Position numbers and translations under genes: made by a program. The notes under the pieces are model-generated. The model ran no database searches. It was not told the origin of the DNA and was given only the letters and a program-made list of their open reading frames with translations. Shown one piece after another: positions 41,989 through 62,857 of a stretch of DNA of 64,000 bases (positions within the stretch are counted from its first letter, which is position 1; every line of letters starts with the position of its first letter). The stretch is from Saccharopolyspora soli (GTDB lineage: Bacteria; Actinomycetota; Actinomycetes; Mycobacteriales; Pseudonocardiaceae), in NCBI RefSeq assembly GCF_022678645.1, contig NZ_JALBWV010000054.1, positions 1 to 64,000 on the forward strand, read 5' to 3'.

Positions 41989-43616
41989 TCATTGACATAG
42001 CGCGAGTCCCTGCTGCTGATAGAAGCTGGCAGGGTCGAGGGCTTGGCCTCCTCCTTCGACCTGGAAGTGCAGGTGCGAGCCTGTGGTTTCGCCGCGGTTG
42101 CCGACTTCCGCAATCGCCTGCCCTGGCTGCACGCGCTGTCCTGTGTGGACATTGTTGTGGTTGTTGTGGCCGTAGATGGGATAGGACGGGTCGGGGCGGT
42201 AAAACCCGCACCCTGCGCACTGGAACCGGATCGGGCACGCCTGCCCGCCGGCCTTGACGTTGGACGGTTCGATGCAGTTGCCGAATGGCACCGCCACCGT
42301 CTTCACCTCGTACGCCGATGCCGAATCCGCCGCCGGGGTGCGGGTGCCGGTGCGGTCGTGCACATAGCGGATCATGATCTTGATGGCGTCGCGTTTCCGT
42401 TCCGGGCTAACGGTGTAGTAGCCCTGCGTGACTTTCAGGTCTCTGTGATCCATAAGCTCTTTGAGGACCTCGACGGCCACTCCGGCATCGACGTGCCGTT
42501 GCGCGTAGGAATGCCGCAGCGAGTACGGGATGATCAGCGACCGGTCGAACGGCAGCGGGGTGCCGTCCGGGCCGGGCAGGTCACTGTGCAGCACCGGAAT
42601 CGCCTCGGCCCAGCCCTTGAACGCGCGCACCAGCCGGTTGGTGCTCAGATGCCCCGGCCCTGCGGTCTCACCCCAGGCGGGAAACAGCCACGGCTGAGTG
42701 GAGGCGGGGAGGTCCAGGCGTGCGCGGTAGTCCTGCCACCGCTGGATGACCCCGGCGGTGGGCGTGGTGATCGGCAGGCGTCGGCGGTGGCGTTTCTTCT
42801 TGTGGTTGTCGTAGATCAGGAAGTACTCGCCATCGAGGACTTCCAGGCAGTCCACGATCAGAGAAACAACCTCGCCTGGGCGGCGTCCGGTGTCGCGCAG
42901 GATCTCGTAGGCGGCACGGAACATGGTCTGCGTGGCCGCGGTGGACCAGGCACGGCCGTAGGTTCGGTCAGTGCCCAGAAGGTGCAGGTTCTGATCAAGT
43001 TGGGCGATCACCGTTTCCGGCAACGCCCTACCGATTTCGTCCTCGTTGGCCTCCTCCCGTCCGATCGTCTGCGAGGAATGCCTGCTGAACGCACTCGGCA
43101 GCTCGGCCAGCAGCGCGGTCTTGCGGCCGAGTTCGAGTACGGCGTGAAACCGCGCCCACAACCCGCGCCGGTAGCGGGCCTCATAAACCCGCCCGGTCCG
43201 CCGACGTGCGTTTTTGATCGCCTGGAACACCGTTTCCATGTCGGCGTACCGCAGCTCGCGTGGCTCGTGACCGCCGCCTGGTCGGTCGGCGGGCCAACGC
43301 CTGCGAGGCCACCGTGCAGGATTGCATCGTGCGAGAGAGCTCTCCCGGGTCAGTGGGGCGGAAGGTCCGTACCCACTCCTTGGCGGCTTCCCGCAGCCAG
43401 CGTTGGCTGATCGGGGTGAAATCAAGCGTGGCTGCGCTTGACGTAGGCGTCGTGCGCGTTCGCGGTCACGCGACCCGAGAAGAACGGCTGGCTGTCGAGG
43501 ATCTTCTCTCGGAAAAGATGAGCAGGAACCTTGGTCCCGACTATGAGCCGACCGAGCGGGGGGCGGGCGATCACGACGCTATTGGTGCGTTTCTGCTGCG
43601 CTGGCCGATCGAGCAC
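41989..43616 (-). pseudogene. Tyrosine recombinase with frameshifted N-terminus, fused at its C-terminus to an M23 peptidase tail
   Basis: The main frame (43425-41989) has a tyrosine-recombinase catalytic domain: Arg in DTGRRPGEVVSL, the HxxR-type box YSLRHSYAQ, His in LMDHRDL and Tyr in TQGYYTVS. A Cys cluster follows (CIEPSNVKAGGQAC, FQCAGCGFYRPDPSY). At that Tyr (about 42180) the protein switches to YGHNNHNNVHTGQRV, then GSHLHFQVEGGG, the end of an M23 metallopeptidase. Upstream, recombinase-like sequence continues in other frames (LDFTPISQRWLREAAKEW near 43420; QPFFSGRVTANAHDAY near 43480), so at least two frameshifts break the N-terminus. Confidence 0.75.
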
Positions 43617-43637: not shown

Positions 43638-44738
43638 TCACGCCGTTGGTGGCAGCGTGCGTTCTGTTCCTCGTGACCAGGTAAACCGTGTCGTCGTGGC
43701 GTGGATGATCTGTGTGGAGGCTGTGCCGTCGCCGTAGGGCGATGGCAGCTCAGCGAGCCGGGCGTGGACCACGGCGAGGTCGGTGAGCCACTTGTTGGTA
43801 ATGGTGCTGATTTCCGGGCCTGGTTGCAGGCGTGTGCCGAAGGTGCCTTCGATTTCGGGGCGTTCGTTGCTGCGGCGGATGACCATGATGGGACGTTTGA
43901 GGACGGTTGCTTCTTCTTGGATGCCACCGGAGTCGGAGATGACCACGGCCGCGTGTTGGATCAGGGTCAGCAGCGCGGTGTAGTCGAGGGGCCCGGTGAG
44001 CCGAAGGTCCCGAGCTAGATCACCGAGCCTGGCCTGCATGATCTGGCGCTGGGTTCGAGGATGCAGTGGGAGAACCACCGGCACAGGTAATGCGGCGAGT
44101 TCGCTCAGGATGGCTGCCAGTGCTGCCGGGTCGTCGGCGTTTTCGGGTCTGTGGACGGTTGCGAGCACGAACGGCTCGGCGCCGAGACCAAGTTGCTGGA
44201 GGAAGTCGACTTGGTTTTCGGTGCTGGGAAGGGCGCTGTGGACGGCTTCGACGATGGTGTTGCCGGTGACCGCGATACGATCGGGTGGGATTCGTTCGGC
44301 GTGAAGGTTGTTGTGTGCCAAGGGTGTGGGTGCGCAGCAGAGGTCGGCGAGGTGGTCGATGAGGACTCGGTTGTGTTCCTCGGGCATGGTGCGGTCGAAG
44401 CTGCGTAGTCCGGCTTCGACATGGACCAGCGGTGTGCCGGTGGCGTTGGCGGCGAGGGCTCCGGCAAGGGCCGAGGTGGTGTCGCCTTGCACGATAACCG
44501 CGTCGGGCTGGTGTTCGCGAAGTAACTGGTCCAGTGCACTGGTCATGGACCCGAGTTGATGGCCTCGTGCCGCATCGCGCTGGGTGTCGAGCACGAGGTG
44601 CGGGGCGAGGTGGCCGATCATGCCAGCGGTGTGGTGCTGTCCGGTGTGGATGACGAACGCGTCCGGGCCAAGCAGTTCGGCAACGGGCGCGAGCTTGATG
44701 GCTTCAGGGCGGGTGCCCACCACGATCGCAATACGCAT
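43638..44738 (-). CDS. wecB: UDP-N-acetylglucosamine 2-epimerase (non-hydrolysing type)
   Basis: A 366-residue GT-B fold epimerase: MRIAIVVGTRPEAIKLAPVA at the N-terminus, VIVQGDTTSALAGALAA, HVEAGLRSFDRTMPEEHNR and VISDSGGIQEEA, all family signatures with the catalytic Asp, Glu and His positions. It interconverts UDP-GlcNAc and UDP-ManNAc. Last gene of the seven-gene minus-strand operon, 18 bases after the NUDIX gene. The 3' end lies next to the recombinase remnant, so the operon may be cut short here. Confidence 0.92.
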   Translation of the reverse strand: MRIAIVVGTRPEAIKLAPVAELLGPDAFVIHTGQHHTAGMIGHLAPHLVLDTQRDAARGHQLGSMTSALDQLLREHQPDAVIVQGDTTSALAGALAANATGTPLVHVEAGLRSFDRTMPEEHNRVLIDHLADLCCAPTPLAHNNLHAERIPPDRIAVTGNTIVEAVHSALPSTENQVDFLQQLGLGAEPFVLATVHRPENADDPAALAAILSELAALPVPVVLPLHPRTQRQIMQARLGDLARDLRLTGPLDYTALLTLIQHAAVVISDSGGIQEEATVLKRPIMVIRRSNERPEIEGTFGTRLQPGPEISTITNKWLTDLAVVHARLAELPSPYGDGTASTQIIHATTTRFTWSRGTERTLPPTA

Positions 44739-44756
44739 GACATCTTCCCAGATGGG

Positions 44757-45407
44757 CTACCAGAACAGATGAGCGCGTTCGCCCGCGCAGTAGCGGCGGG
44801 CGGCGACGAACAGGCGTAGGTAGAGCTGGTCGAGGCCGAGGTAGTTGGGCACGAGCTCGCCACGGGACAGGGTGCCTTCGGTGTAGGTCAGGCCGTGGTC
44901 GCTGCGGGTGGCGAAGCGACTCGGGACAGATTCCACGCTGCCGTCGGCGAGAGCGATGGCGTCGTCGAGGTCGAGCTCGACAAGTCCGGAGACTTCGGCG
45001 TCCGAGAGCGGGATGGCGTCCAGGTCGACGTCGAGGGGCAGCAGGTGCCAGTGCTGGAATTCGCGTTCGATGTAATCCGGGGCGAGGGTGACGGCGGTCT
45101 GGCGCAGGCCGATGGGGTGTAGCTCGCTGTAGGCGACCGGAAGACCGAGTTCTTCGTGGACTTCACGGATCCCGTCGGGGACGGTTTCGCCTGCGTGATA
45201 GTGGCCACCGACGGTGATGTCGGCGTAGTCGGGACGATCGAAGGAATAGCGGCCCGGGGCCTTCTTCTGCAGCAGCACTCGACGGGCACTGGGATTGATG
45301 GCGAGCGCGGAGAAGGCGCGGTGCCAGAGCCCTCGGCGGTGGGCTTGTTTCTTGCTCTCGGTGCCGACGTGTTCATAGCGGTCGTTGAAGATGTCGATCA
45401 GTGTCAC
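44757..45407 (-). CDS. NUDIX hydrolase
   Basis: A 216-residue protein with a Nudix box from about residue 67: GGHYHAGETVPDGIREVHE, followed by ELG. The N-terminus (IDIFNDRYEHVGTESKKQAHRRGLWHRAF) and a FQHWHLLPLD segment resemble the isopentenyl-diphosphate isomerase/YfcD branch of the superfamily rather than MutT. GTG start at 45407 overlaps the upstream TAG by one base (TAGTG). Substrate unknown; within the operon a sugar-nucleotide or prenyl diphosphate is conceivable. Confidence 0.88.
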   Translation of the reverse strand: MTLIDIFNDRYEHVGTESKKQAHRRGLWHRAFSALAINPSARRVLLQKKAPGRYSFDRPDYADITVGGHYHAGETVPDGIREVHEELGLPVAYSELHPIGLRQTAVTLAPDYIEREFQHWHLLPLDVDLDAIPLSDAEVSGLVELDLDDAIALADGSVESVPSRFATRSDHGLTYTEGTLSRGELVPNYLGLDQLYLRLFVAARRYCAGERAHLFW

Positions 45408-46207
45408 TAGTGCAGGTCTCCTGTTGCGGCGGGTTCGGGGGTATTGAGATTCCAGTAGGCGTGCAGGGCGTCGAGGTAGCGGCGTGGGTCGCCGACGGTG
45501 ACCCAGTGTGCCGCGATCCGGTGCACGGCGACGCGGGCCTCGGCGGCGAGCTGGCCCACGGCGATGCCGAGGTCGACTTCCCCTCGGGCCAGCTCGGTAG
45601 GCCGGAGCAGATCGAGGATGGAGGGGCGCAGGATCAGACGAGAGACCACCCCGAGGGGTTCGTCCACCGTCTCAGGATCGGGCCGTTGGCGAATCGCGGT
45701 CACCCGCTGGCCCTGTTCGGGGTCGGTGTCGATGATGCCGAACGAACGGGTGTCGTTCGGATCGATGCGCTGAGCGGCGACGATCGCCTCCGTCTCGGGC
45801 CGCATCTGCTCGCGCATGGCCGCGAGGTTGCCACCGCGCGGCTGTTCACCGAGCAGAATGTCGTCGCCGAACGCGACGGCGAACGCCTCGCAGGTTGCGA
45901 GGCGATCTCGCAGCGTGAGCAGCGGCGTGGCATTGCCGTAGCCGTGGCTGAGATCTTCCTCGACAGTGTCGACCGGTAGCCCGTCGGCACGCAGGCCGCG
46001 AACGTGTGCCGGGATGATGCGGTCCCCAGGGCGGGTCACGACGATGACCTCCGAGGCGCCAGCGGCCAGGCACTCGACGATCACGTACTCGACCGCGGGT
46101 ATATGGCCCAGCGGCAGCATTTCCTTCGGCACGGTACTGGAGAACGGTTGGAAGCGGGTCGCCGCTCCAGCTGCGGTGACGATGGCCGGAAACGCCGTTG
46201 TGGTCAT
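45407..46207 (-). CDS. Sugar-1-phosphate nucleotidyltransferase (GalU-like)
   Basis: A 266-residue GT-A fold nucleotidyltransferase: AIVTAAGAATRFQPFSSTVPK is a G-x-G-x-R-x-x-P-x-T-x-x-x-P-K variant (first Gly pair replaced by Ala), then EMLPLGHIPAVEYVIVE, EDLSHGYGNATPLL and AFGDDILLG with the metal-binding Asp. It would join NTP and a sugar 1-phosphate. Slightly shorter than GalU (about 300). Starts in an ATGA overlap with the HprK-like gene (46204-46207). Confidence 0.88.
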   Translation of the reverse strand: MTTTAFPAIVTAAGAATRFQPFSSTVPKEMLPLGHIPAVEYVIVECLAAGASEVIVVTRPGDRIIPAHVRGLRADGLPVDTVEEDLSHGYGNATPLLTLRDRLATCEAFAVAFGDDILLGEQPRGGNLAAMREQMRPETEAIVAAQRIDPNDTRSFGIIDTDPEQGQRVTAIRQRPDPETVDEPLGVVSRLILRPSILDLLRPTELARGEVDLGIAVGQLAAEARVAVHRIAAHWVTVGDPRRYLDALHAYWNLNTPEPAATGDLH

Positions 46208-47325
46208 CGAGGATGCCTCTCGATGTCGAGGACGGTCTTGTCGAGTTCATCCAGCGGGTTGCGGATACCGAATCTGATTTCGAAGCACGGGATGTGGGCC
46301 GCGAGATGGTGCGTGAGCTGGTGTGCTCGGCGGTGGAGCTCGGGCTCGGGTCTGCCGCGTGGGACCAGCCAGGGTTGCTGCCAGAACTCGTCGTGCGGGG
46401 TGAAGCAGCTGGCGCGCAGCACCTGCTGGGTTTCACCTGGTGGCAGTGCGCGGATTCGCGGAGGCTCGGCGCTGTCGGACAGGCGAGGCACGAGGATGGT
46501 CCGCAACCACGAACCGGGCGCCAGGGAAGCGCCGAGGGCGGTGGCGTACTCGCGGGCACTGAACTCCGCCTTCTCCGTCGCACCAAATGTTCTGGGCAAC
46601 TCGCTGATGGTCCGTTGTGGACGAGACAACCCGGGTACCGCATTGGCGAGCTCGGGCACGGCATCGAGGGTGCCTCGGGCGATGGGCACAGGCAGCGGAA
46701 CCGCAACGAGGCGCCCGTGTCGGTCGAGGATGAGCCGATCATTGGACAGCAAGGCACCGCGGGTAGAGCGAAGCAGGCAGGTCAGCACAGTGGTCTTGCC
46801 CGCGGAGCGAGGGCCGCAGATCATCACGCCATGCCCGCCGAGGTCGGCCCCGGCCGCGTGGAAGACGATGCCGCCGTGGTCTTCGTAGGTGCGCAGCATG
46901 GCTTCGCGCATCAAGCGCAGCGGGTACCCATGCGGTTTGCGGACGCCGTGGTGCAGGTACAACTCGATGTGCCTCTCGTGCACGCGGACCGCGAATGCGC
47001 GGGCTTGATGTTCCACACCATCCGCGGCCACGGCGTAGCAGCGCATCCCGGAAGGCATGCGGGTCTCAAGTAGGACCACGCCGGGAATGGGCTCGATGCG
47101 CCTGGCGATCGGTGGATTGGTGACCTGCCAGACGACCTCGTGACACTGCGCGTCGTCGGGATACACGGCCAGGTGGAAGGTGCCTAAATCCCGGTCGCCG
47201 ACGCGACCAGGCAAGTACTGGGCCAAGTAGTCGCGCTGGTCCTCTGCCCATGCCGCGGGCGCGGTGATCGTGAACGCCAGGTCTCCGGCGTGGGAGGTCC
47301 ATATCTCGTAGGGCTGTGGCGTCAT
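46204..47325 (-). CDS. HprK-like (HPr kinase/phosphorylase-related) kinase
   Basis: A protein of about 373 residues. The C-terminal half carries GIVFHAAGADLGGHG, then MICGPRSAGKTTVL (Walker A) and SNDRLIL, the arrangement of HprK-related P-loop kinases. The N-terminal 130 residues are unrecognised. Such kinases occur outside sugar-PTS control next to radical SAM or peptide-modifying enzymes, where they phosphorylate unknown substrates. The ATG at 47325 shares its first base with the upstream stop (TGATG); GTG at 47331 is an alternative. Confidence 0.8.
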   Translation of the reverse strand: MTPQPYEIWTSHAGDLAFTITAPAAWAEDQRDYLAQYLPGRVGDRDLGTFHLAVYPDDAQCHEVVWQVTNPPIARRIEPIPGVVLLETRMPSGMRCYAVAADGVEHQARAFAVRVHERHIELYLHHGVRKPHGYPLRLMREAMLRTYEDHGGIVFHAAGADLGGHGVMICGPRSAGKTTVLTCLLRSTRGALLSNDRLILDRHGRLVAVPLPVPIARGTLDAVPELANAVPGLSRPQRTISELPRTFGATEKAEFSAREYATALGASLAPGSWLRTILVPRLSDSAEPPRIRALPPGETQQVLRASCFTPHDEFWQQPWLVPRGRPEPELHRRAHQLTHHLAAHIPCFEIRFGIRNPLDELDKTVLDIERHPR

Positions 47326-48116
47326 CACCACTCCCGGATGCGTCGTGCGACTTGGTCGATACGCAGTCGCCGCCCAGCCTCGTCAAGTTGCCGGAAGCCC
47401 AAGACCGAAGTGAGCGCGAAGAAGTCCTGCACCTCCTCGACAGCTGCCTCACCCATGGCTGCGCGCACCGCGAGGCCGCGTCGGGCACGGAACCACGCCG
47501 CGGGGAAGCCCTCGTCGGCGATGTTGGTCGGGAATTCGTACGAGAAGGGGAGAAGTTCTTGTGCGGCAGATGGATCCGCCGTGCGCAAGAGCGTCCGCAG
47601 GGCGTAGCCGACGAGGGCATCGAGAATGACCGGCGTGTCGAAGCACAGCGCGCCGAACAATTCGTCGAACAAGCTCTCCGGTGCGGGGCGCAGACTCGGG
47701 ATCAGCGGCGGTAACACGTCGACCAGGACCAGCTGGTCATCTTCCAGGCAGAAGTTCGCGAGGTTGGTGTCGATCCGAGCGTCGGTACCGTCGAGGTCAC
47801 GGACCCAGCGGCCGATCTGCGCGATGGCGGCAGCGAACGTGGCGGGATCGGTCTCGTTGGGGGCATCCAGCAGAGTCGGACCCGCCACCCAGCGGTGCCG
47901 GACGGTCAGCGGCTCGGCGGCGACCAGCCGCAGGCAGCTGGGCAGCCGCACGTGGGCGGACCGCAGGACATGGAGGTAGCACTGCATTCCTGCGGCGCCG
48001 GTTGTGGTCATGGCCGTGACGAATCTGTTCCCGGCGGGATGGCGTCCGTTCAGGCGCTTGGTGACGTGATCGCCGTCGCGGCGATGGGTGCTGAACTCGC
48101 CCAGGTGGTGGCTCAC
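47325..48116 (-). CDS. Kinase-fold-like protein of unknown function
   Basis: A 263-residue protein. In its centre, RIDTNLANFCLEDDQLVLVD resembles the catalytic and DFG-type loops of small-molecule kinases (D-x-x-x-x-N and a following acidic D-V-L), and an aromatic LPFSYEFPTNIADEGFP region follows. Similar proteins occur with MazG, nucleotidyltransferase and HprK-like genes in actinobacteria, but I know of no function. GTG start at 48116 overlaps the MazG-like stop (GTGA). Confidence 0.6.
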   Translation of the reverse strand: MSHHLGEFSTHRRDGDHVTKRLNGRHPAGNRFVTAMTTTGAAGMQCYLHVLRSAHVRLPSCLRLVAAEPLTVRHRWVAGPTLLDAPNETDPATFAAAIAQIGRWVRDLDGTDARIDTNLANFCLEDDQLVLVDVLPPLIPSLRPAPESLFDELFGALCFDTPVILDALVGYALRTLLRTADPSAAQELLPFSYEFPTNIADEGFPAAWFRARRGLAVRAAMGEAAVEEVQDFFALTSVLGFRQLDEAGRRLRIDQVARRIREW

Positions 48117-48673
48117 GAGGCGCCCCCTCGCTGGTCGAGGAAGGAGTCGGCGTCGGCGACCATCGACCGGAACTCACCGATGAGATCGAGCCCGAGTTGG
48201 TCCGCGAGCACGTCGCACGCGGCGATGACCGCAGCCGACGCCTCCGGCAGAGACGGTGGCCTGCCCTCGGGCCGATGCCGGTAGTGATGTTCCACCAACG
48301 CGGCCTCCGACAGGCTGCCCGCGGCCACCAGCAGCCGCAGAAACGCCTCCACCTCGTTACGCGCCTGCGGGTGCCCGGTTGCTTCTGCGGGCTCCGAATG
48401 TGCCAGGACATTGATACTCAAGGCAGCGAGGACGACGTCGGCCAGCTCGTCACCGACGTTGGTAATCGACCGTTGCGGATCTTCCCAGGCGGAGACGTCG
48501 GCCCCGTGCTGCCGGAGCAGACACAACGCCAAGTGTCCGACTTGGACAGACAGTTCGGCTGCCGCCGTGCTGGGGTCCCATTCTTGGAATGCGGTTGTGG
48601 CGAACCGCTGACGCAGGCGGCGGACGTCGGCAAGCACTTCGTGCAGGCGGTCGCTGAGCAGGGTGCGATTCAT
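48113..48673 (-). CDS. MazG-like nucleotide pyrophosphohydrolase-type protein
   Basis: A protein of about 186 residues, helical throughout. TAAAELSVQVGHLALCLL and the later DELADVVLAALSINVL match the paired E-x-x-E-like and E/D-x-x-D metal-binding helices of all-alpha NTP pyrophosphohydrolases (MazG family), though the first site is weakened (ELSVQ). The C-terminal half is extra helical sequence. The start at 48673 is set by the ATGA overlap with the radical SAM stop at 48670. Confidence 0.7.
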   Translation of the reverse strand: MNRTLLSDRLHEVLADVRRLRQRFATTAFQEWDPSTAAAELSVQVGHLALCLLRQHGADVSAWEDPQRSITNVGDELADVVLAALSINVLAHSEPAEATGHPQARNEVEAFLRLLVAAGSLSEAALVEHHYRHRPEGRPPSLPEASAAVIAACDVLADQLGLDLIGEFRSMVADADSFLDQRGGAS

Positions 48674-49845
48674 CCCACGATCACGGGCGTGGCCCCAGCG
48701 GTACCGCTGCTCCAATACGCGTCAGCGTCATCCCGCACCACACGCACCCGAACACCCAAGTCCTGCGTCAACGCAGCAGCGAGGTTCGTGTCGACCACTG
48801 CGTCAATGACCAGTTCGCGACCATCCTCGGCCAGCGTGAACGGCGCCTCGCCGAGAGCCCGCCGGGCCAAGGCCGCACGTACATCAGCCGCGGTGGGTGG
48901 AATGCGTTCGGCGTCGGCGACGGTGCATCGCTCACGTTGGGCAATCGGACAGTAATTCCGCATCCGGCACACCTGGCTGCCGAACACGCCGAAGAAATCG
49001 GGTCGTCCGAGGACATAGGCCAGGGCACAGGAGTTCGTATGAAACAGCGGATAGCCGGGATGCCGCTGCCACGTGCGGTGAATGAACTCCCAGAACCCAC
49101 GCGGATACACACCTTCCGCCTCGATCACCCCTGCCGTGGTTGCCAACTCGGGCCACACCTGCGCCAGGCGAGCGAGCGCGCCCTTCTCCACCTTCAAACC
49201 GGCTGCGACGGTGCAGCGGGCGTAGCGCGCCGCATGGCCGAGCACGATCCGCATCCTCTCCAGGTCAGCGGATTCCGGGAATGCGGGACGCCAGTAGTGC
49301 ACGATCGGAATCCCCGCCTCAGCCAACCGTGGGAAGTTCTCCGCGATTGCGTCGTGACGGATGCCCCGCTCGATATCCCGCCCTAGCCCCGAGTAGCTCA
49401 GGTACACCAACACAGTCACACCTCGATGCCGAGCGGCGTTAATGACCTCGATCGTCTCGTCCGGAACATGGCACTTCGTGATCAAGACAACCGGGTTGCG
49501 CACCTGCTGTCGAACCAGTTCCTCCAGCAGGTCGGCCAGGTGAGCACGTGAGGCGGGCAAGGCCATCACGTCCGTCCACGTGTACAAGGCCACCGGACGC
49601 AGCGGCCCGTAGAACGAGGAGTTCACCAGCAACTCCACCGACTCTTCGGCCGACACCAAATGCTTCGGCGGCACAGCGGCTTGGCCGCGCTCATTGAGAA
49701 AGCAATACGTGCACTTCTTCGGGCAACCCTGCACCGGATTGACCGCGATCCACGTCGCGTGCTGATCGACAACCGGAGTCCACATTCTTGGCTCAACAGC
49801 ACCAGAATCGGATGCTCGACGTCCGGACGATGCGTGGTCAGCCAT
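48670..49845 (-). CDS. Radical SAM protein
   Basis: A 391-residue radical SAM enzyme: NPVQGCPKKCTYCFLNERG contains the CxxxCxxC that binds the 4Fe-4S cluster (Cys 41, 45, 48), and the barrel continues with VLITKCHV, VLVYLSYSGLG and IVHYWRPAFP. A C-terminal Cys group (NSCAL, QVCRMRNYCPIAQRERC) could hold a second cluster. First gene of the seven-gene operon, about 100 bases after the XRE regulator. I cannot name the substrate. The context of nucleotidyltransferase, epimerase, kinases and MazG suggests a modified nucleotide or sugar nucleotide. Confidence 0.88.
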   Translation of the reverse strand: MADHASSGRRASDSGAVEPRMWTPVVDQHATWIAVNPVQGCPKKCTYCFLNERGQAAVPPKHLVSAEESVELLVNSSFYGPLRPVALYTWTDVMALPASRAHLADLLEELVRQQVRNPVVLITKCHVPDETIEVINAARHRGVTVLVYLSYSGLGRDIERGIRHDAIAENFPRLAEAGIPIVHYWRPAFPESADLERMRIVLGHAARYARCTVAAGLKVEKGALARLAQVWPELATTAGVIEAEGVYPRGFWEFIHRTWQRHPGYPLFHTNSCALAYVLGRPDFFGVFGSQVCRMRNYCPIAQRERCTVADAERIPPTAADVRAALARRALGEAPFTLAEDGRELVIDAVVDTNLAAALTQDLGVRVRVVRDDADAYWSSGTAGATPVIVG

Positions 49846-49942
49846 CGCTTGTCCCCTCCCACGTTGGCCGTGCGGAGGAAAGCTACGAGCCCTACTAGCG
49901 AGTAACTCGAGCTGTCAGTCCGGGTGGCCCAGCAGGCAGGAA

Positions 49943-51139
49943 TCAGCTCACAGGTACCGACAGCTTCTCGGCTAAGCGAGCTGCTTCCTTGGCGGTGGTG
50001 CGACCGGCTCGCTGGACAACCTCGCGCAGGATGCTGTGCGCCAGGGGCCGGTAGGCGACGTCCTCGGGTGCCTCACGCTCGGCGCTGTTCAGGAGAACCA
50101 ACGCACTGCCATAATCCTTGCGCTGCTGATAGGACCGCGCCTGTTCAAGCAGGAACGCGACGCGGCGCTCGATCGACGGAGATCGCTCATGCTCGATCTC
50201 TTCCGCCAGGTGGCACGCTTGGCTGGTCTCGCCCGCTTCGACCTCGATGCTCACCGCGTGCATCGCGACGTTGGTCGGGCCGAACGCGGTCCACAAGGTG
50301 TTGCACTCACCGGTCTTCCACGCCACCGGCATCACCGAGCGGACGCGATCCCGAGCTGTCCACATGTCCCGCCGACGCGCGGCAGCGACGCCTGCGACAA
50401 GAATCAGCGAGCCGTACACGGCGGCAGCATCTGGGCCGGAATGATCCCGTAGCTCGTGCGCCGCGTTCATCGCGATATCTTCGGCCACCTCATGGTGGCG
50501 CTCCGCCAACGCAACGTGGGCCAGGTTCCACCGCGCCGCACCAACCCGCAAGGAATCATCGCTTACCTCGGCCGCCCGCAACCCCCGGTCCGCGGCGAGA
50601 AGCGCCAGGTCCACGCGGCCCGTGCGCTTCGCGACAGTGCGCGTGAGCCCGTAGAGATCGGCCGCCGCCCGGTGTGCCTCGCATCCGGTGCCAGTGGCGT
50701 CCGCGGTGTGCAGGGAACGCTCGACTTCCACGATGAGATTCCCGAGGAGGCCGCTGACCTGGCTATATCGGGTCGGAGAAGACTGCCACAACCGCCACGC
50801 TTCGTTGATTTGATTGCGAAGATCGGCCAACGGCAGCGGTTCTCCCTCAGCCGCTGGCCGTAGCGTCATCGCCCGGTGCAACTCCTCGCCCGCAGCACGA
50901 CTCTGTCGCGGCACAACCTCCTGCGATTGCGTATTGATCAGGGATGCGGGCGGGACATCGAGTGCATCAGCGATGGCGACCAGGACCGGCACGGTGGGCA
51001 GCTTCTTGCCGCGCTCGATCTGGTACAGGTAATCGGTGGTGATTCCAGCGAGGCCAGCGACCACGTTCTGGGTTTTCTTCGCCGCGAGCCGGTGAAACCG
51101 GACCCGCTCACCCACGTCCAGCGCCAGTTGATCAACCAT
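49943..51139 (-). CDS. XRE-family transcriptional regulator with TPR-like C-terminal domain
   Basis: A protein of about 398 residues. The N-terminal helix-turn-helix spans residues 8-65 (VRFHRLAAKKTQNVVAGLA, TTDYLYQIERGKKLPTVPVL). The remaining 330 residues are Ala-rich helical hairpins of the TPR type (AADLYGLTRTVAKRTG, ARWNLAHVALAERHHEVA). Such regulators are common in actinobacteria beside secondary-metabolite or signalling genes. ATG at 51139 is preferred over an upstream open extension. It is upstream of and on the same strand as the radical SAM operon, and divergent to the HAD gene, so it likely controls one or both. Confidence 0.87.
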   Translation of the reverse strand: MVDQLALDVGERVRFHRLAAKKTQNVVAGLAGITTDYLYQIERGKKLPTVPVLVAIADALDVPPASLINTQSQEVVPRQSRAAGEELHRAMTLRPAAEGEPLPLADLRNQINEAWRLWQSSPTRYSQVSGLLGNLIVEVERSLHTADATGTGCEAHRAAADLYGLTRTVAKRTGRVDLALLAADRGLRAAEVSDDSLRVGAARWNLAHVALAERHHEVAEDIAMNAAHELRDHSGPDAAAVYGSLILVAGVAAARRRDMWTARDRVRSVMPVAWKTGECNTLWTAFGPTNVAMHAVSIEVEAGETSQACHLAEEIEHERSPSIERRVAFLLEQARSYQQRKDYGSALVLLNSAEREAPEDVAYRPLAHSILREVVQRAGRTTAKEAARLAEKLSVPVS

Positions 51140-51212
51140 CGCTCGCCGCCCCAGCCAGAATGGGTCTGCGGGGTTGATGCTACGGCATCGATCACCTGCG
51201 ACACTGGCATTT

Positions 51213-51917
51213 ATGGCAGCCGACCGCCAGACGCGCTTGGTGCTCTGGGACATCGACCACACCCTGATCGAAACACGCGGAGTGGGACGCGAGATCTACG
51301 AACGCGTGTTTCCCAAGGTGACCGGCCAACCCCTGCGCGAACTCGCCGCCGTGCACGGCCGCACCGAGCTCGACATCATCCACAACACGCTGCAACTACA
51401 CGACCTCGAACCCACCGAGCGGACCGTCAACCAGCTCGCCGCCGCGCTCGCCGACGGCTACCGCGACGCGCTCAACGAACTCACGACACGAGGCCAAGTG
51501 TTGCCGGGCGTGTGGGAAGCACTCGATGCCCTCGCAGGCGAGTCTGGGATTCACCAGAGCGTGCTGACCGGCAACACGAGGGACGTTGCCCGCATCAAAG
51601 TCGAAGCCTTCGGACTCGACCGCTACCTCGACCTGTCCATCGGCGCGTACGGCGACGACCACCGCGACCGGTCCGAACTCGTCGGTATCGCCCGCAAACG
51701 CGCAGCACAGCAACTCGGCAGAACGATCCCGGCAGCACAAGTGGTCCTCATCGGAGACACGCCCAGCGACGTAGAGGCCGCACTCATCGCGGGCAGCCAG
51801 ATCATCGCCGTCGCCACCGGCAAGTACACCGTCGACGACCTACGCGCCGCCGGCGCGGCAACGACCTTCGACCGCCCCACCGACGTTCAGCAACTGTGGC
51901 GAGCCATAACACGCTGA
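51213..51917 (+). CDS. HAD-superfamily phosphatase
   Basis: A 234-residue haloacid-dehalogenase-type hydrolase: motif I VLWDIDHTLIE (nucleophile Asp), motif II VLTGNTRD, and motif III/IV VVLIGDTPSDVEAAL. The helical cap lies between motifs I and II as in phosphoglycolate phosphatase-like (Gph) enzymes. It is divergent to the XRE gene with about 70 bases between starts and may work with the operon on that side. Substrate unknown. Confidence 0.88.
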   Translation: MAADRQTRLVLWDIDHTLIETRGVGREIYERVFPKVTGQPLRELAAVHGRTELDIIHNTLQLHDLEPTERTVNQLAAALADGYRDALNELTTRGQVLPGVWEALDALAGESGIHQSVLTGNTRDVARIKVEAFGLDRYLDLSIGAYGDDHRDRSELVGIARKRAAQQLGRTIPAAQVVLIGDTPSDVEAALIAGSQIIAVATGKYTVDDLRAAGAATTFDRPTDVQQLWRAITR

Positions 51918-52803: not shown

Positions 52804-53032
52804 TGATCGAGTGTGTGCCCGTCGCACGGGAAGGGCGATGCTGCGGTGTATCTCGCTGTGCTCTACCAGCGCCAGCACCGCGACGACCTCGCAGCGGCTG
52901 GTGGACGATCGCCAAGGACGAGGGGGTCAGCGAGCGACCTGTTCGAGGTGGACCGGCTCGGACGACGGAACAGTCCCCTCGCTGACCTGCGGATCTTGGC
53001 TTGGCGCCAACGGCTGTACCGCTGCTCACCCC

Positions 53033-53244
53033 GGAACCATCCCCGCATGCGCGGGGCCGACCCCTCCTGCTCCTCGGTCGCCGCCAGCAGGGCGGAAACA
53101 TCCCCGCATGCGCGGGGCCGACCTGATGATCGGACGGCAGCCTCGGCTTGCCTCGGAAACATCCCCGCATGCGCGGGGCCGACCGTACCGCCGTCCTGGC
53201 CGGGAGCCTTCTTCAGGAAACATCCCCGCATGCGCGGGGCCGAC
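53033..53244 (-). CRISPR. Type I-E CRISPR array 1 (4 repeats, 3 spacers)
   Basis: Four 29-base repeats start at 53033, 53094, 53155 and 53216, a constant 61-base period, with three 32-base spacers (53062-53093, 53123-53154, 53184-53215). In the minus orientation each repeat begins GTCGGCCCC, has an inner GC-rich palindrome and ends in GGGGATGTTTCC. The repeat at 53033 is the variant one (GGTTCC end) and is therefore the leader-distal, terminal repeat. The leader end faces cas2, whose stop is only 18 bases away. Transcription would run leftward with the cas operon. Confidence 0.95.
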
Positions 53245-53262
53245 GCTTGTTGACCTGGGGTG

Positions 53263-53541
53263 TTATTGGCGTGGGCGGGCTGAGAGGATTAGTCCGTCGT
53301 AGTCGACTGGGCGCCATCGGTCGCGTCCTGCGGTGCGGACTGCCCAGCCTTGTTCGTTGTTGGCGGGTTCGACGAGTACTGCTTGGCCGTCGCCGATCCG
53401 GCTGGACAGGAGCTCCCAGAGGCGGTCTCGTACGCGTCGGTTGGGGTTGCCGACGAATACTCCGGCGTTGACTTCGACCATCCAGCGGGTGAGGTGGCCG
53501 CGGAGTCCTTCGGGTGCGGCGATGAGGACGATGACGGTCAT
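53263..53541 (-). CDS. cas2e: CRISPR-associated endoribonuclease/integration protein Cas2e
   Basis: A 92-residue Cas2e: MTVIVLIAAPEGLRGHLTRW, then EVNAGVFVGNPNRRVRDRLW and a conserved GLILS end. It partners with Cas1 to form the spacer integrase. Its start overlaps the cas1 stop by four bases. The 3' end lies 18 bases from the first repeat of array 1. Confidence 0.93.
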   Translation of the reverse strand: MTVIVLIAAPEGLRGHLTRWMVEVNAGVFVGNPNRRVRDRLWELLSSRIGDGQAVLVEPANNEQGWAVRTAGRDRWRPVDYDGLILSARPRQ

Positions 53542-54581
53542 TCCGGCTCCGAAATTGGGTTGTCGAATTCCGGGCCGATGATTGAGATGTGTTGTTCTCC
53601 CGTGTCTGGTTGTGTGGCTGGGTATTGGGGTTCGTCGGTGGGGTCGGCGTAGACGGCGTAGTTCACGCCGCCCGGTACCGCATCGTGCCGTTCGTCCCAG
53701 AGATCGTTGGCTTCTGTCTCACCGTCACCGCCGGATTCGCCGGCCTCGAGGAGTGCTTTGACATCGCGGACAATCCGGGCGAGTAGGCGGTCCTCGGTGA
53801 TGCGTTCGCGCAGGCCTATTCGCGCGTCTCGTTCGTCGTTGAGTCCTGCTGCGGCGAGGTCGAAGGCGAGCGGGATGGTGTACTCGGCTTTGTACAGGTC
53901 GGCGATGTCCATGACGAACGACGTGGCTGCGCCGGTGTGGACGAAGCCGAGCCCTGGGCTGGCTCCGAGCCCGGCGATAACGGCATGGCAGATTCCGTAG
54001 AGGGCGGCGTTTGCGGCCGAGAGCAGTCGGTTGAGGTCGTCGCCGGCGGCGAAGGCGTCGCCGGGGCGATATTCGCGGCCGTTCCATGTGATGCCGGTGC
54101 GGCGGGAGTGCTCGTGGTAGAGCTGGCGGATGCGGGCGCCTTCACGGCCGCGGAGTTGTTGCATGGTCAGGCCCGAGACGTCTTCGCCGGGAAAACGCAT
54201 GCCATACATGGCTCGTGCCACGGCCAGGCGTTCCTTGGTGCGGCTGACCAGCCAGGCTTGTCGTTGCAGGAGCGCTGTTCCGCGACTGGGGCCGACGCCG
54301 GCGGCGTACATGCGGACGCCGTGATCACCGACCCAGCAGACCGCGGTGCCGGAGTCGGCGAGCAGGCGAATCGCTGCGTGCGTCACGCGGGTGCCGGGGC
54401 CGAGCAGCATGACCGTGATCATTGCTGCGGGGACCCGGACCGTCTCGCGCTTGTTGATGACGACGACGGCGTTGTCGTTGCGGTCGAGGTGGCTGCGTTC
54501 GACGTAGATGCTGGAGACGCGGTCCACCAGCCGGTGCAGGTCGTGCGGGTCGGCTTTCCACCAGGGCGTGGTCATGGTCAT
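53538..54581 (-). CDS. cas1e: CRISPR-associated integrase Cas1e
   Basis: A 347-residue Cas1: REGARIRQLYHEHSRRTGI carries the first metal-ligand Glu, GLGFVHTGAATSFVMDIADL the His and Asp ligands. It is about 30-40 residues longer than E. coli Cas1 because of an acidic C-terminal tail. Together with Cas2 it integrates new spacers. Start overlaps the cas6e stop (ATGA at 54578-54581). Confidence 0.94.
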   Translation of the reverse strand: MTMTTPWWKADPHDLHRLVDRVSSIYVERSHLDRNDNAVVVINKRETVRVPAAMITVMLLGPGTRVTHAAIRLLADSGTAVCWVGDHGVRMYAAGVGPSRGTALLQRQAWLVSRTKERLAVARAMYGMRFPGEDVSGLTMQQLRGREGARIRQLYHEHSRRTGITWNGREYRPGDAFAAGDDLNRLLSAANAALYGICHAVIAGLGASPGLGFVHTGAATSFVMDIADLYKAEYTIPLAFDLAAAGLNDERDARIGLRERITEDRLLARIVRDVKALLEAGESGGDGETEANDLWDERHDAVPGGVNYAVYADPTDEPQYPATQPDTGEQHISIIGPEFDNPISEPE

Positions 54582-55375
54582 CGACCGCCCGGATCGGGGT
54601 GTTCTCCGGGCAGTGGTGCCAGGGTGAGCAGGCCGCAGCCATATGCCTTGGAAGGGCCGATTCCGGCGGTGAGTTGGTGAGTCAGCTGCTGGGGGTCTGT
54701 GACACGGAGTCGGCCTTCGAAGGTGGCGGTGTGCAGCACCACGGGTGGTTTGTTGCGGTTCTTGCTGAAGGAGTGTCGGTTTCGGGCTGTGATCCGGACT
54801 TCGTGCGCGGGCCCCGGTTCCTGCCGTTCGCCTATCGCATTGATGGTTACTGGGGTGATCCCCGGGGCGGCGGTGTCGGTGCGAGATTCAGGGATGTCGA
54901 AGCCCCAGCGGGCGGTTCGTTCGAGGAACCACTTGAGTTGCGCGGCGGCGGTGCGGTGCCCGATGCGGTGGGAACGGGTGTCACCGCGGGCGGTGCGCGC
55001 GGCCTGGTTCGGGGTGGGTTTGTCGGGTGTGGAGGTGTTCTGGACCGGGCTGGCGGTGAGCCGGAATGCGAATTCCCGGCCGTGGGCGATCTGGGCGAGC
55101 AGTGGGGTGTAGTCGCGGACGGCGGCGTGTTCGCCGTCGGCGTCGGGCCAGCCCGCTTGCTCGATGATGTGCGTCCAGTCGGGTTTGGAACGGGTGAGGA
55201 CGAACAGCACGGGCCGTCGGGGATTGTCGGAATCCAGGCGCCACAGAATGCGTTCGTCGGTGGGCTTCTCGGCGATTCCGCCGAGGACGGCACCGTGCAG
55301 TTTCCGCGGGTTGGCCAGCAGCGATCGGCTGGCGGCACGCAGCGGATTAATGCGGATGCGGGACAAATACGTCAC
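54578..55375 (-). CDS. cas6e: CRISPR RNA endoribonuclease Cas6e (CasE)
   Basis: A 265-residue RAMP protein. MTYLSRIRINPLRAASRSLLA is the typical Cas6e start, with a HGAVLGGI-like active-site helix (KLHGAVLGGI, His nearby) and the glycine-rich closing loop AGIGPSKAYGCGLLTL. It cuts the repeat RNA to give mature crRNA and stays in Cascade. GTG start at 55375, seven bases after the cas5e stop. Confidence 0.93.
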   Translation of the reverse strand: MTYLSRIRINPLRAASRSLLANPRKLHGAVLGGIAEKPTDERILWRLDSDNPRRPVLFVLTRSKPDWTHIIEQAGWPDADGEHAAVRDYTPLLAQIAHGREFAFRLTASPVQNTSTPDKPTPNQAARTARGDTRSHRIGHRTAAAQLKWFLERTARWGFDIPESRTDTAAPGITPVTINAIGERQEPGPAHEVRITARNRHSFSKNRNKPPVVLHTATFEGRLRVTDPQQLTHQLTAGIGPSKAYGCGLLTLAPLPGEHPDPGGR

Positions 55376-55381
55376 GGGAAA

Positions 55382-56200
55382 TCACCAGCCCAGTAGGGCG
55401 AAGGGGTCGTGGCCGCTGTCGTCGGCGTCGTGTCGGTTGCGGTCAGCGGTGTCGGGGTCAGGGGCGGGAAGTCCGGTGGGCACGGTCACCCAGGTGTGGC
55501 GGATCCGGCGGCCGATGAAAGTGCGCCGGTGTGGGTCGAAGGATTGTGGGACGTCGTTGAGGATGTCGTCTCCGTGGTCGGGGTCTTCCAGCGTGGCCGA
55601 CAGGTCGATCCGGTGACTGGTGCTGCAGCGGCGGTCGTAGGCGCGCCGCGTGGTGTCGGTTGCCCGCCAGGGTTCGGCGGCGAGGACGTCGTGGAGTGTG
55701 CCCTCGCGCAGGCCCAGACAAATCGGCTGTGTGGGCACGCAGGAGCGTCGGCCCAGCGCTAGGGGGAAGGCGGGGTGGCGTACCGCGTCGTCGAGGGTTT
55801 CCAGCAGGGCCTGGGGGCCGGCGGCGGCGGCGAGGAACACGGCGTCCTGCAGGTAGAAGCGGGTGGTGACGTGGGTGTGTTTGGGTGGGGAGGTCAGCTT
55901 CTGCACTCCCTTGCTGGACACCCCGGCCTGCGGCAACGCGCGCCCGCGGTAGTCGCTGACGGTGTGATAGTCGCGCAGCAGCGTGCCGGGCTGGTCGACC
56001 CGAACGCCCAACTGCAGTTCCGCTAGGTCGTCGACAGGGTCTTCACGGGCACGGCCGCTGGCGGCGGCCAGCAGCCCGATGACCCCGGACTTGGTGGGCT
56101 CGGGCCGGGTATCGCGGCGGTTGAAGGAACTGCGATCGCCCCAGGACTGCAACGGCCCGGCCAGGCGAAGTAGCAGGACAGCATCCTCGGGATGGGCCAT
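55382..56200 (-). CDS. cas5e: Cascade subunit Cas5e (CasD)
   Basis: A 272-residue Cas5e: LLLRLAGPLQSWGDRSSFNRR, then PTKSGVIGLLAAASGR and a YHTVSDYRGRALPQ region. It holds the 5' handle of the crRNA in Cascade. Start shares one base with the cas7e stop (TGATG). The C-terminal tail (about 30 residues of Asp/His) is longer than usual. Confidence 0.93.
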   Translation of the reverse strand: MAHPEDAVLLLRLAGPLQSWGDRSSFNRRDTRPEPTKSGVIGLLAAASGRAREDPVDDLAELQLGVRVDQPGTLLRDYHTVSDYRGRALPQAGVSSKGVQKLTSPPKHTHVTTRFYLQDAVFLAAAAGPQALLETLDDAVRHPAFPLALGRRSCVPTQPICLGLREGTLHDVLAAEPWRATDTTRRAYDRRCSTSHRIDLSATLEDPDHGDDILNDVPQSFDPHRRTFIGRRIRHTWVTVPTGLPAPDPDTADRNRHDADDSGHDPFALLGW

Positions 56201-57363
56201 CAGTTGTTCTCCCCAGTGCCGACAAGGTGCTCACGCAAGTCTGCGACGAGCTGGGGGAAGGAGCGGGTCTGTCCGAAGGCGCCGGTCAGCGCGGAGGTCG
56301 TGGCCTCATCGTCGGCGTCAAGGGTGCAGCACAGGCCGGTGAAGGCGGGCGCATCGCCCCAGACGGCGATCGCGGTGGTCTGCTCCCGGGCCAGCCTGCG
56401 TGCGGAGGTCGCGGCGATGCCGCTGTCCGCGCGGCTACCGGTGCCTGCGGTAACGGGGTTTTCGAAGGCGGACACGAGGTTGACGGGCTGGTCGTCGCGG
56501 ACCACGACCGCCACCAGGTGCGGAAGGGTGCGGTGCGCGAAGGAGTTGGTGTAGCCCGAGGGCATCGAGCGGGCGAAGCAGGAAAGGAACAACTCCACAG
56601 CCTGCAGCGCGGTGTTACGGTCCCCGCCGAGGTTGTCCTGCAGTTGGTGCAGGCCGATGGTGGCGAACCGGTAGAGCGTTGCGGAGTTGAATCCGATGGT
56701 GCCGATCATGCCGGCACCGGTTTTCCCCTCGGGGTTCTCGTCGTCGACGGCGGTGTAGTAGTCGAATTCCAATTCCGTGGCGTGGGTCGACACCGCGTGG
56801 GCGACCTGGGTGGCGGCATCGACCTTGAGGGTGGGGATCTCGGCGACCATGCGCCCGAACAACGCCACGTCCACCGGGTGCCCAGTGTCGAAGGCATCCT
56901 TAACCGGCAAATCCTTGACCGCCTCGGCCAGTGCCGTGTCGTCGAGGGCGATGAGTTCCTCGGCTCGCTCTTGGACCAGCTCGGCGACGGCGGCGAGCTG
57001 GCGGCGCCCGTAGAACAGTAGATACGCGGTGTCGCCGGCTTTTTTGCCCGCCTTGATGTCCAGCACCTTGAGAACTGCATCGGCCAGGCGTGCCGCCGCC
57101 TCGCCGTCGAGCGTGGTCCGTTCCCGCAGCAGATCCGTGAGACCGGCGGCGATCCTTTTCGTGCGGGTGCCCAAGTCCTGCTCGTCGATGTCCTGCTTGG
57201 CGAACGCCAGCCGGGTCGCCCGCTTCCACGCCTGCGACGACACGCGCGAACGCCGGACACCACCGAAATAGGCTTCCTTCGGGTTCCCCTGGTCGTCGCG
57301 GTTCAGATTGGCCGGGGGCACGGTCTGCAGGATGTGCACGTCGATATAGCGGCGCTGGGACAT
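56200..57363 (-). CDS. cas7e: Cascade backbone subunit Cas7e (CasC)
   Basis: A protein of about 387 residues: YIDVHILQTVPPANLNRDDQ, YFGGVRRSRVSSQAWKRATR and NSFAHRTLPHLVAVVVRDD, all diagnostic of Cas7e, which coats the spacer part of the crRNA. ATG at 57363 gives the family start MSQRRYIDVH; the frame is open for 17 codons further up but these are not family-like. Confidence 0.94.
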   Translation of the reverse strand: MSQRRYIDVHILQTVPPANLNRDDQGNPKEAYFGGVRRSRVSSQAWKRATRLAFAKQDIDEQDLGTRTKRIAAGLTDLLRERTTLDGEAAARLADAVLKVLDIKAGKKAGDTAYLLFYGRRQLAAVAELVQERAEELIALDDTALAEAVKDLPVKDAFDTGHPVDVALFGRMVAEIPTLKVDAATQVAHAVSTHATELEFDYYTAVDDENPEGKTGAGMIGTIGFNSATLYRFATIGLHQLQDNLGGDRNTALQAVELFLSCFARSMPSGYTNSFAHRTLPHLVAVVVRDDQPVNLVSAFENPVTAGTGSRADSGIAATSARRLAREQTTAIAVWGDAPAFTGLCCTLDADDEATTSALTGAFGQTRSFPQLVADLREHLVGTGENN

Positions 57364-57446
57364 CAGTGATCTCCGTGATTCGGTTCGGCGGCAGCAGGCT
57401 GCCGCTTGGGTCAACTCGTCGTTGTCGTGCGAGAAAAGCCGTGGTT

Positions 57447-58070: not shown

Positions 58071-58114
58071 AACCAGTGTCGGTCCTTATTTTGATCCAAG
58101 AAGGGTCGCCGAGC

Positions 58115-59785: not shown

Positions 59786-59861
59786 CAGCACCCCCAGACA
59801 CCGCCACGGTCTCCTTCCTGCGTCCTTCCTTGTCAACGGTGGTCGACATAGGTTTCCTGTG

Positions 59862-62756: not shown

Positions 62757-62857
62757 ACACCCCCCTCGACGGCATCCGTCACCAACAAGGCACGAACCGT
62801 AGCGGTCCCCGCCGACAACACCGCCGAAGCACACGGACAGGGCGCCGCTACCCGAGA

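What the first reader, a model, noticed from the sequence alone, without database searches (positions are those of the whole stretch)
43638..51917. Seven-gene coupled operon (radical SAM, MazG-like, two kinase-like proteins, nucleotidyltransferase, NUDIX, 2-epimerase) with XRE and HAD partners: candidate undescribed pathway
Seen: seven minus-strand genes from 49845 to 43638, five of the six junctions overlapping (ATGA, GTGA, TGATG, ATGA, TAGTG), preceded by an XRE/TPR regulator and a divergent HAD phosphatase. Known: each family acts on nucleotides, sugar phosphates or phospho-transfer. Inference: together they could build or recycle a modified sugar nucleotide. A phospho-sugar would be made by the HprK-like or kinase-fold protein, charged by the GalU-like enzyme, epimerised by WecB and altered by the radical SAM enzyme, with MazG, NUDIX and HAD proteins removing by-products. 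I know of no named pathway with this set.
Basis: partly seen in the sequence, partly recalled or inferred. Interest (0 to 1): 0.8.

Follow-up and report, generated by a model that had tools for sequence, protein, structure and literature searches.

The report
Conserved six-gene radical-SAM kinase operon
A few actinobacteria carry a block of six tightly packed genes, always in the same order, that looks like an undescribed pathway for building an unusual nucleotide or nucleotide-linked sugar, but the product is unknown.

Summary
The operon is real and conserved as a unit. Six genes (radical SAM, MazG-like, protein-kinase-fold, HprK-like, GalU-like nucleotidyltransferase, NUDIX) occur in the same order and strand in 10 of 10 loci found, from at least two actinobacterial orders. 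Their divergences correlate (r 0.74-0.90). A WecB-type epimerase follows in 6 of 10; the close XRE regulator plus divergent HAD occur in 2 of 10. So the unit is six genes plus an optional epimerase.

'MazG' is not supported. The 'kinase fold' is. The radical SAM protein has CxxxCxxC plus four further invariant cysteines. Of its sister relatives, 6 of 12 were viewed: they sit beside MurA-like or GalU-like genes. Of 23 more distant loci viewed, 21 have a 3'-5' exonuclease gene beside it, 15 a dNMP kinase and 7 thymidylate synthase plus NDK. Nearly all contexts handle nucleotides, so I favour a modified nucleotide-sugar or nucleoside-type product. The closest analogue, by gene set only, is the 4'-thiothymidine cluster. 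Substrate, chemistry and product are inferred. My searches found no paper on this set.

The parts
48670..49845 (-). Radical SAM protein (P0001, 391 aa); CxxxCxxC at C41/C45/C48 plus invariant C273, C293, C299, C307
   Evidence: Pfam Radical_SAM 30.9 bits, cut-off 29.5; CxxxCxxC, SCAL-type and CPxxQxxxC motifs in 10 of 10 operon loci; C273, C293, C299, C307 invariant in an alignment of 12 relatives
48113..48673 (-). Small protein called MazG-like (P0002, 186 aa); GDELAD motif in 10 of 10 loci, MazG homology unproven
   Evidence: Pfam MazG-like 13.6 bits vs cut-off 27, 1 of 7 members; hhalign probability 5% and 1% against two annotated MazG proteins; motif count
47325..48116 (-). Protein-kinase-fold phosphotransferase (P0003, 263 aa): K20, D116-N121 catalytic loop, D133 metal site (roles recalled)
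46204..47331 (-). HprK-like P-loop kinase (P0004); the ATG at 47325 is the likelier start
   Evidence: GKT of Walker A in 9 of 9 aligned copies and (N/G)DR after it (the split L053 copy was left out); weak HprK profile hits; HPrK in the PDB E 0.028, behind RuvB-like proteins at 4e-4 over another region
45407..46207 (-). GalU-like nucleotidyltransferase (P0005, 266 aa)
   Evidence: NTP_transferase 54.4 bits vs 21.2; GalU 98.1 bits vs equivalog cut-off 326.8; PDB GalU profile hits down to 3.4e-29
44757..45407 (-). NUDIX hydrolase of the YfcD/IDI-like type (P0006, 216 aa), the most conserved gene of the core
   Evidence: NUDIX 37.9 bits vs 21.1; 58-80% identity to the window copy; Nudix box in 9 of 10 loci by regex, L056 lacks one residue
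43638..44738 (-). Non-hydrolysing UDP-GlcNAc 2-epimerase, WecB (P0007, 366 aa); optional, 6 of 10 loci
   Evidence: TIGR00236 274 bits vs 210; distribution
49943..51139 (-). XRE-type HTH/TPR regulator (P0008 from its ATG at 51139)
   Evidence: HTH_31 44.1 bits vs 27; 67-68% homologue in the same place in L107
51213..51917 (+). Divergent HAD-family hydrolase (P0009)
   Evidence: HAD 55.2 bits vs 27; 69% homologue in the same place in L107

Best explanation
A small biosynthetic operon, inherited as a unit, that makes a modified nucleotide-linked metabolite, most likely an unusual nucleotide-sugar or a nucleoside-type compound. Shown: the conserved gene order, co-divergence, a predicted kinase fold, intact catalytic motifs, and the mostly nucleotide-handling neighbours of the radical SAM family. 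Inferred: the two kinases (protein-kinase fold and HprK-like P-loop) phosphorylate a sugar or nucleoside precursor. The GalU-like enzyme couples the sugar-1-phosphate to a nucleotide. The radical SAM enzyme, using the SAM cluster and probably a second Fe-S cluster held by C273/C293/C299/C307, alters the sugar or base. Where present, the WecB-type enzyme epimerises a UDP-HexNAc. The NUDIX enzyme cleaves a diphosphate, either to release the product or to protect the host. The close XRE regulator and HAD hydrolase are local accessories in two loci, not core parts.
For: Same six genes, order and strand in 10 of 10 loci; divergence of all 15 gene pairs correlates, 0 or 1 of 2000 permutations reach it. 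The radical SAM operon clade is monophyletic (0.964) and groups (1.0) with radical SAMs next to MurA-like plus aldolase genes (4 loci) or GalU-like plus glycosyltransferase plus HAD genes (2 loci). In a distant clade 21 of 23 viewed loci have a 3'-5' exonuclease gene beside it, 15 a dNMP-kinase-like gene and 7 thymidylate-synthase-like plus NDK genes. HprK-like relatives sit in clusters annotated with 7-deazaguanine and deoxyribosyltransferase genes. GalU, NUDIX and WecB profile matches. Kinase fold with conserved residues. A characterised radical SAM + nucleoside kinase + NTPase cluster makes 4'-thiothymidine (PMC12691670; outline, passages and section 7 seen).
Against: No glycosyltransferase or exporter is in the core, so the end use of the product is unexplained. 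The MazG label fails, which removes one nucleotide argument. GalU equivalog and HprK cut-offs are not met, so substrates are open. The radical SAM model has low confidence around the cluster (pLDDT under 50 at 37-62) and its structural neighbours are radical SAM folds in general. Exonuclease-clade relatives share only 23-25% identity with P0001, and the one tested with Pfam (L111) reached no family at E 0.001. The Roseibium relative has none of the nucleotide genes nearby and the Nostoc one only the kinase. Support for the MurA+GalU grouping (0.675) and the exonuclease clade (0.515) is weak. The close XRE/HAD pair recurs with the operon in only one other locus.
Confidence: 0.5

Rival explanations
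1. Anti-phage defence through a modified nucleotide (viperin-like logic): the radical SAM enzyme and kinases make a chain-terminating or toxic nucleotide, and NUDIX protects the host.
For: Rare, patchy distribution; the window operon lies beside CRISPR-like repeats and cas-like genes (cas names recalled); distant radical SAM relatives on plasmids pair with 3'-5' exonuclease and dNMP kinase.
Against: No PADLOC family for the core proteins except a weak PDC-S01 hit for P0004, E 0.037; the XRE protein has generic HTH hits. No relative of P0001 in the phage records, none confirmed in viral contigs. GalU-like and WecB genes fit sugar nucleotides better. No test of defence-gene enrichment in the flanks was made.
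Confidence: 0.15
2. A peptide (RiPP) or protein modification system: HprK-like and protein-kinase-fold proteins phosphorylate a peptide, the NTase adds a nucleotide or sugar, and the radical SAM enzyme modifies side chains.
For: Weak hits of P0004 to HprK-related and ScmC models (their RiPP-type context is recalled); the radical SAM model aligns with peptide maturases such as SuiB among others; kinase plus nucleotidyltransferase pairs act on lasso peptides (recalled).
Against: The genes overlap tightly, leaving no room for a precursor between five of the six pairs; no PqqD-type or transporter family in the core by Pfam; the NTase is GalU-type, not the NTP_transf_5 type. A systematic small-ORF search was not made.
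Confidence: 0.12
3. House-cleaning or repair of damaged nucleotides: an SPL-like radical SAM with NUDIX and a pyrophosphatase-like protein sanitises nucleotides.
Against: GalU-like NTase, two kinases and an optional epimerase are not needed for repair; MazG label unsupported; the rare distribution is odd for a housekeeping function.
Confidence: 0.08
4. A regulatory or signalling module in which the kinases act on proteins and the sugar enzymes are passengers.
For: Protein-kinase fold of P0003, with Bud32/PRPK and RIO kinases among the nearest.
Against: All six genes co-diverge and are together in the 10 loci found.
Confidence: 0.05

Closest known systems
4'-thiothymidine cluster thmABC of Photorhabdus (PMC12691670)
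   Same: Compact operon of radical SAM enzyme, kinase and a nucleotide hydrolase; genes co-cluster wherever present (section 7).
   Different: Only three genes; no GalU-like NTase, HprK-like protein or epimerase is described. Homology of ThmA to P0001 was not tested (sequence not in hand).
Nikkomycin/polyoxin-type enolpyruvyl transferase plus radical SAM (NikO/NikJ, PolA/PolH; recalled)
   Same: In 4 of the 6 sister loci viewed, the radical SAM gene lies directly behind a MurA-like gene on Streptomyces plasmids.
   Different: No MurA-like gene in the window operon; homology to NikJ/PolH not tested.
HPr kinase-related proteins (NCBIfam HprK_rel_A/B, ScmC)
   Same: P-loop with GKT and a downstream (N/G)DR motif; weak profile similarity.
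   Different: Far below the family cut-offs (HprK_rel_B 20.7 vs 200, HprK_rel_A 12.9 vs 200, ScmC 16.2 vs 125 bits); different operon partners.
Non-hydrolysing UDP-GlcNAc 2-epimerase (WecB/MnaA)
   Same: Equivalog cut-off passed (274 vs 210 bits).
   Different: Optional last gene of an otherwise unrelated operon, 6 of 10 loci.
Spore photoproduct lyase and PA0069/Rv2578c radical SAMs
   Same: Similar cluster motif and fold.
   Different: 26.3 vs 360 (PA0069), 19.1 vs 430 (Rv2578c) and 11.8 vs 437.6 bits (SPL family); extra C-terminal four-cysteine set.

Membership tests
Radical SAM superfamily | CxxxCxxC cluster motif and Pfam PF04055 over cut-off | tested here: met
   P0001 30.9 vs 29.5 bits; motif in 10 of 10 loci
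Spore photoproduct lyase family | TIGR03886 equivalog score | tested here: not met
   11.8 vs 437.55 bits
Viperin-type antiviral radical SAM | Match to a defence-library model | tested here: inconclusive
Protein-kinase-like fold | Kinase fold with beta3 Lys, catalytic Asp-x4-Asn and metal Asp | tested here: met
HPr kinase/phosphorylase and HprK-related kinases | Family profile over cut-off | tested here: not met
   HprK_rel_B 20.7 vs 200, HprK_rel_A 12.9 vs 200; HPrK in PDB E 0.028
HPr kinase/phosphorylase and HprK-related kinases | Walker A P-loop and downstream acidic motif | tested here: met
   GKT in 9 of 9 and (N/G)DR in 9 of 9 aligned copies, L053 left out
GalU UTP-glucose-1-phosphate uridylyltransferase | TIGR01099 equivalog cut-off | tested here: not met
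   98.1 vs 326.8 bits, although the family-level NTP_transferase cut-off is met
MazG nucleotide pyrophosphohydrolase | Profile homology to MazG | tested here: not met
   13.6 vs 27 bits, 1 of 7 members; hhalign probability 5.1% and 1.1%
NUDIX hydrolase | Nudix box and Pfam cut-off | tested here: met
   37.9 vs 21.1 bits; box in 9 of 10 loci, the tenth has a one-residue gap
Isopentenyl-diphosphate isomerase | NF002995 equivalog cut-off | tested here: not met
   38 vs 127 bits
WecB 2-epimerase | TIGR00236 equivalog cut-off | tested here: met
   274.1 vs 210.15 bits
4'-thionucleoside clusters | Radical SAM homologous to ThmA or AbmM | not tested
RiPP cluster | Precursor peptide gene | not tested
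   No systematic small-ORF comparison was made

The most novel reading that the evidence does not exclude
The operon makes an undescribed class of nucleotide-derived small molecule. Its radical SAM enzyme belongs to a broad family, with members in actinobacteria, a cyanobacterium and alphaproteobacteria, that uses a second Fe-S cluster (C273/C293/C299/C307) to rebuild nucleotides or nucleotide sugars, possibly by inserting sulfur as reported for AbmM. The various operons (six-gene, MurA-type, GalU-type, exonuclease/dNMP-kinase-type) would be different products of one enzyme family.
Probability: 0.2. Interest if true: 0.8.

Novelty: new variant of a known kind. Interest (0 to 1): 0.6.

Why it matters
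A fixed six-gene set that kept all members in the ten loci found, with an unassigned radical SAM enzyme, an unassigned protein-kinase-fold phosphotransferase and an unassigned HprK-like kinase, is a well-bounded target for finding new nucleotide chemistry. The wider radical SAM family next to exonuclease, dNMP kinase and thymidylate synthase genes suggests an overlooked group of nucleotide-modifying systems that could be antibiotics, defence agents or altered DNA precursors; each is testable by heterologous expression.

Tried and rejected

The HprK-like relatives in FAD-oxidoreductase/GT4/NUDIX/phosphotransferase clusters and in 7-deazaguanine clusters show no homologue of the other five core families at E 0.5, so they are context, not members. 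Literature searches: in an open-licence library only. PMC12691670 was seen as outline, passages and section 7; other papers only as listings and abstract starts.

L053 is left out of the HprK-like and NTase divergence tables: its HprK-like gene is split. Close plasmid relatives of P0001: 6 of 12 viewed (H2, H4, H5, H7, H10, H11). Distant relatives: 23 viewed, namely 6 of 25 plasmid records, 8 of 8 places and 9 of 14. In the tree 18 of these 23 were used; L043, L074, L077, L084 and L085 were left out. The gene profiles were built from some of the same loci. The P0003 scan relied on two short peptide patterns (525 stretches, 5 confirmed), so operons without them are missed. Gene boundaries in unannotated loci come from a home-made caller or longest ORFs.
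Full report
OBSERVATION. The window is nearly all of a 65,052-base contig of a 9.35-Mb actinobacterial genome. Seven minus-strand genes run from 49845 to 43638, with five overlapping junctions and one 18-nt gap; an XRE/TPR gene and a divergent HAD gene lie upstream.

CONSERVATION. P0003 is rare: 2 of 394 genomes sampled from the class, own genome included. It led to one further operon (L051, a different order). A pattern scan of a collection of 84,980 species genomes gave five more: Actinokineospora inagensis, Gandjariella thermophila, an Actinophytocola MAG, Streptomyces sp. AV19 and Amycolatopsis iheyensis. A radical SAM profile in 397 genomes of the order gave 16 genomes at E 1e-15 or better. 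Five had very strong matches (640-740 bits: own, G691, G695, G738, G719) and eleven only weak ones (best 63-108 bits). G691 is the same locus as Actinokineospora inagensis. All ten distinct loci have the six genes in the same order and strand, with the HprK-like gene of L053 split over frames. WecB follows in six: the window, L053, L054, L106, L107 and L108. It is not found by tblastn at E 1e-5 in the fetched stretches of L051, L052, L055 and L056. Only L107 repeats the close XRE (67-68%) and divergent HAD (69%) layout; L054 and L108 have distant XRE relatives (28%, 31%). The scan by P0003 is biased towards complete operons; the radical SAM profile was built from operon members, but its 5 strong matches were found without regard to neighbours and all 5 carry the full core.

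CO-DIVERGENCE. Pairwise identities of the six genes correlate (r 0.74-0.90 over all 15 gene pairs; 0 or 1 of 2000 label permutations reach the value), as expected if the set is inherited and transferred as a unit. NUDIX and radical SAM are the most conserved (median pairwise identity 73% and 60%), HprK-like the least (43%).

THE RADICAL SAM FAMILY. tblastn of P0001 finds 37 plasmid records: 12, all Streptomyces, at 40-52% identity and 25 weaker. I viewed 6 of the 12. Four have a MurA-like gene directly upstream and a class II aldolase gene before it, three of them also a GT4 gene; a neighbouring protein of L039 is of hexapeptide type. Two have a GalU-like NTase upstream and a glycosyltransferase and HAD gene downstream, with deaminase genes nearby (annotated in L042, by resemblance in L082). 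In a midpoint-rooted tree the operon clade is monophyletic (10 sequences, support 0.964); operon, MurA and GalU types together form one clade (16, 1.0); the MurA+GalU grouping (0.675) and the exonuclease clade (18, 0.515) are weakly supported. Of 23 distant loci viewed, 21 have a 3'-5' exonuclease gene next to the radical SAM gene, 15 a dNMP-kinase-like gene and 7 thymidylate-synthase-like plus NDK genes. Most are actinobacterial; Mesorhizobium has exonuclease and kinase, Nostoc only the kinase, Roseibium neither. Two MurA-type plasmids (L039, L041) also have exonuclease and kinase genes downstream. Across 12 diverse members C273, C293, C299 and C307 are invariant, which suggests a second Fe-S cluster. 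One distant member tested with Pfam (L111) reached no family at E 0.001, so its class rests on the profile match and the motif. The radical SAM model of P0001 is only moderate (pLDDT 70.5, pTM 0.76, low around the cluster loop); its VIA neighbours are mostly radical SAM enzymes of many kinds, with lipoyl synthase first, while Foldseek alone ranks other TIM-barrel proteins among them.

INTERPRETATION. The common denominator of nearly all these neighbourhoods is nucleotide and nucleotide-sugar chemistry. Together with the GalU-like, NUDIX and optional WecB genes this favours a modified nucleotide-sugar or nucleoside-type product. The order of steps is inference. A three-gene cluster of radical SAM enzyme, kinase and nucleoside triphosphatase makes 4'-thiothymidine in Photorhabdus, and its triphosphatase gives self-resistance (PMC12691670, passages and section 7). 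That is a precedent for the logic, not evidence of homology, which I could not test. That paper also cites work in which AbmM swaps sulfur for oxygen with its Fe-S cluster as donor; I saw only that statement.

RIVALS AND LIMITS. Defence, RiPP, repair and signalling readings are listed with their tests. Against my reading: no glycosyltransferase or exporter in the core, MazG unsupported, substrate unknown, and the distant clade shares only 23-25% of residues with P0001.

NOVELTY. I found no paper describing this set in full-text searches of an open-licence library; subscription papers are mostly not covered. I rate it a new variant of a known kind (radical SAM-containing nucleotide or sugar pathway), with a bolder reading kept in the novel case.

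Noticed in passing
L111 4257-7697, L115 8271-12254, L114 8759-11110, L086 7737-9888 and others: A distant radical SAM clade forms a recurrent module with a 3'-5' exonuclease (21 of 23 loci viewed), a dNMP-kinase-like gene (15 of 23), sometimes thymidylate-synthase-like and NDK genes (7 of 23) and an aldo/keto reductase; it reaches Mesorhizobium. It may be a separate undescribed nucleotide-modifying system.
   Followed up: partly
L069 1873-12851; L070 1891-13793: Plasmid clusters in Streptosporangium and Amycolatopsis sp. AA4 combine genes annotated for 7-deazaguanine synthesis, nucleoside 2-deoxyribosyltransferase, isomerases and HAD with an HprK-like protein and an adjacent nucleotidyltransferase (NTP_transf_5 in L069).
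   Followed up: partly
L067 2765-9726; L068 7229-14175; L073 7226-15285: Three Streptomyces plasmids share the order FAD-dependent oxidoreductase, HprK-like, small protein, glycosyltransferase, hypothetical, NUDIX, phosphotransferase.
   Followed up: no
L039 5883-11119; L041 5883-11119; L072 7891-13119: GT4, hypothetical (hexapeptide type in L039), class II aldolase, MurA-like and radical SAM genes in one row on Streptomyces plasmids; resembles enolpyruvyl-nucleoside chemistry (recalled).
   Followed up: partly
window 53019-63853: Two arrays of repeats spaced about 61 nt (53019-53245 and 63589-63853) flank genes that look like a type I-E CRISPR-Cas set (gene names recalled, not tested).
   Followed up: no
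window 41989-43425: Tyrosine-recombinase-like ORF whose C-terminal tail reads in frame as a peptidase-M23-like fragment; looks like a recombination junction just behind the epimerase gene (by eye, not tested).
   Followed up: no
L053 10837-11902: The HprK-like gene of Gandjariella thermophila is split over two frames in this draft assembly; left as found.
   Followed up: no
L119 2516-4450 (also L115 17516-19000): An XRE-TPR (53%) and divergent HAD (60%) pair like that of the window occurs without the operon, about 7 kb from a distant radical SAM module, so the pair may be a portable regulatory cassette.
   Followed up: partly
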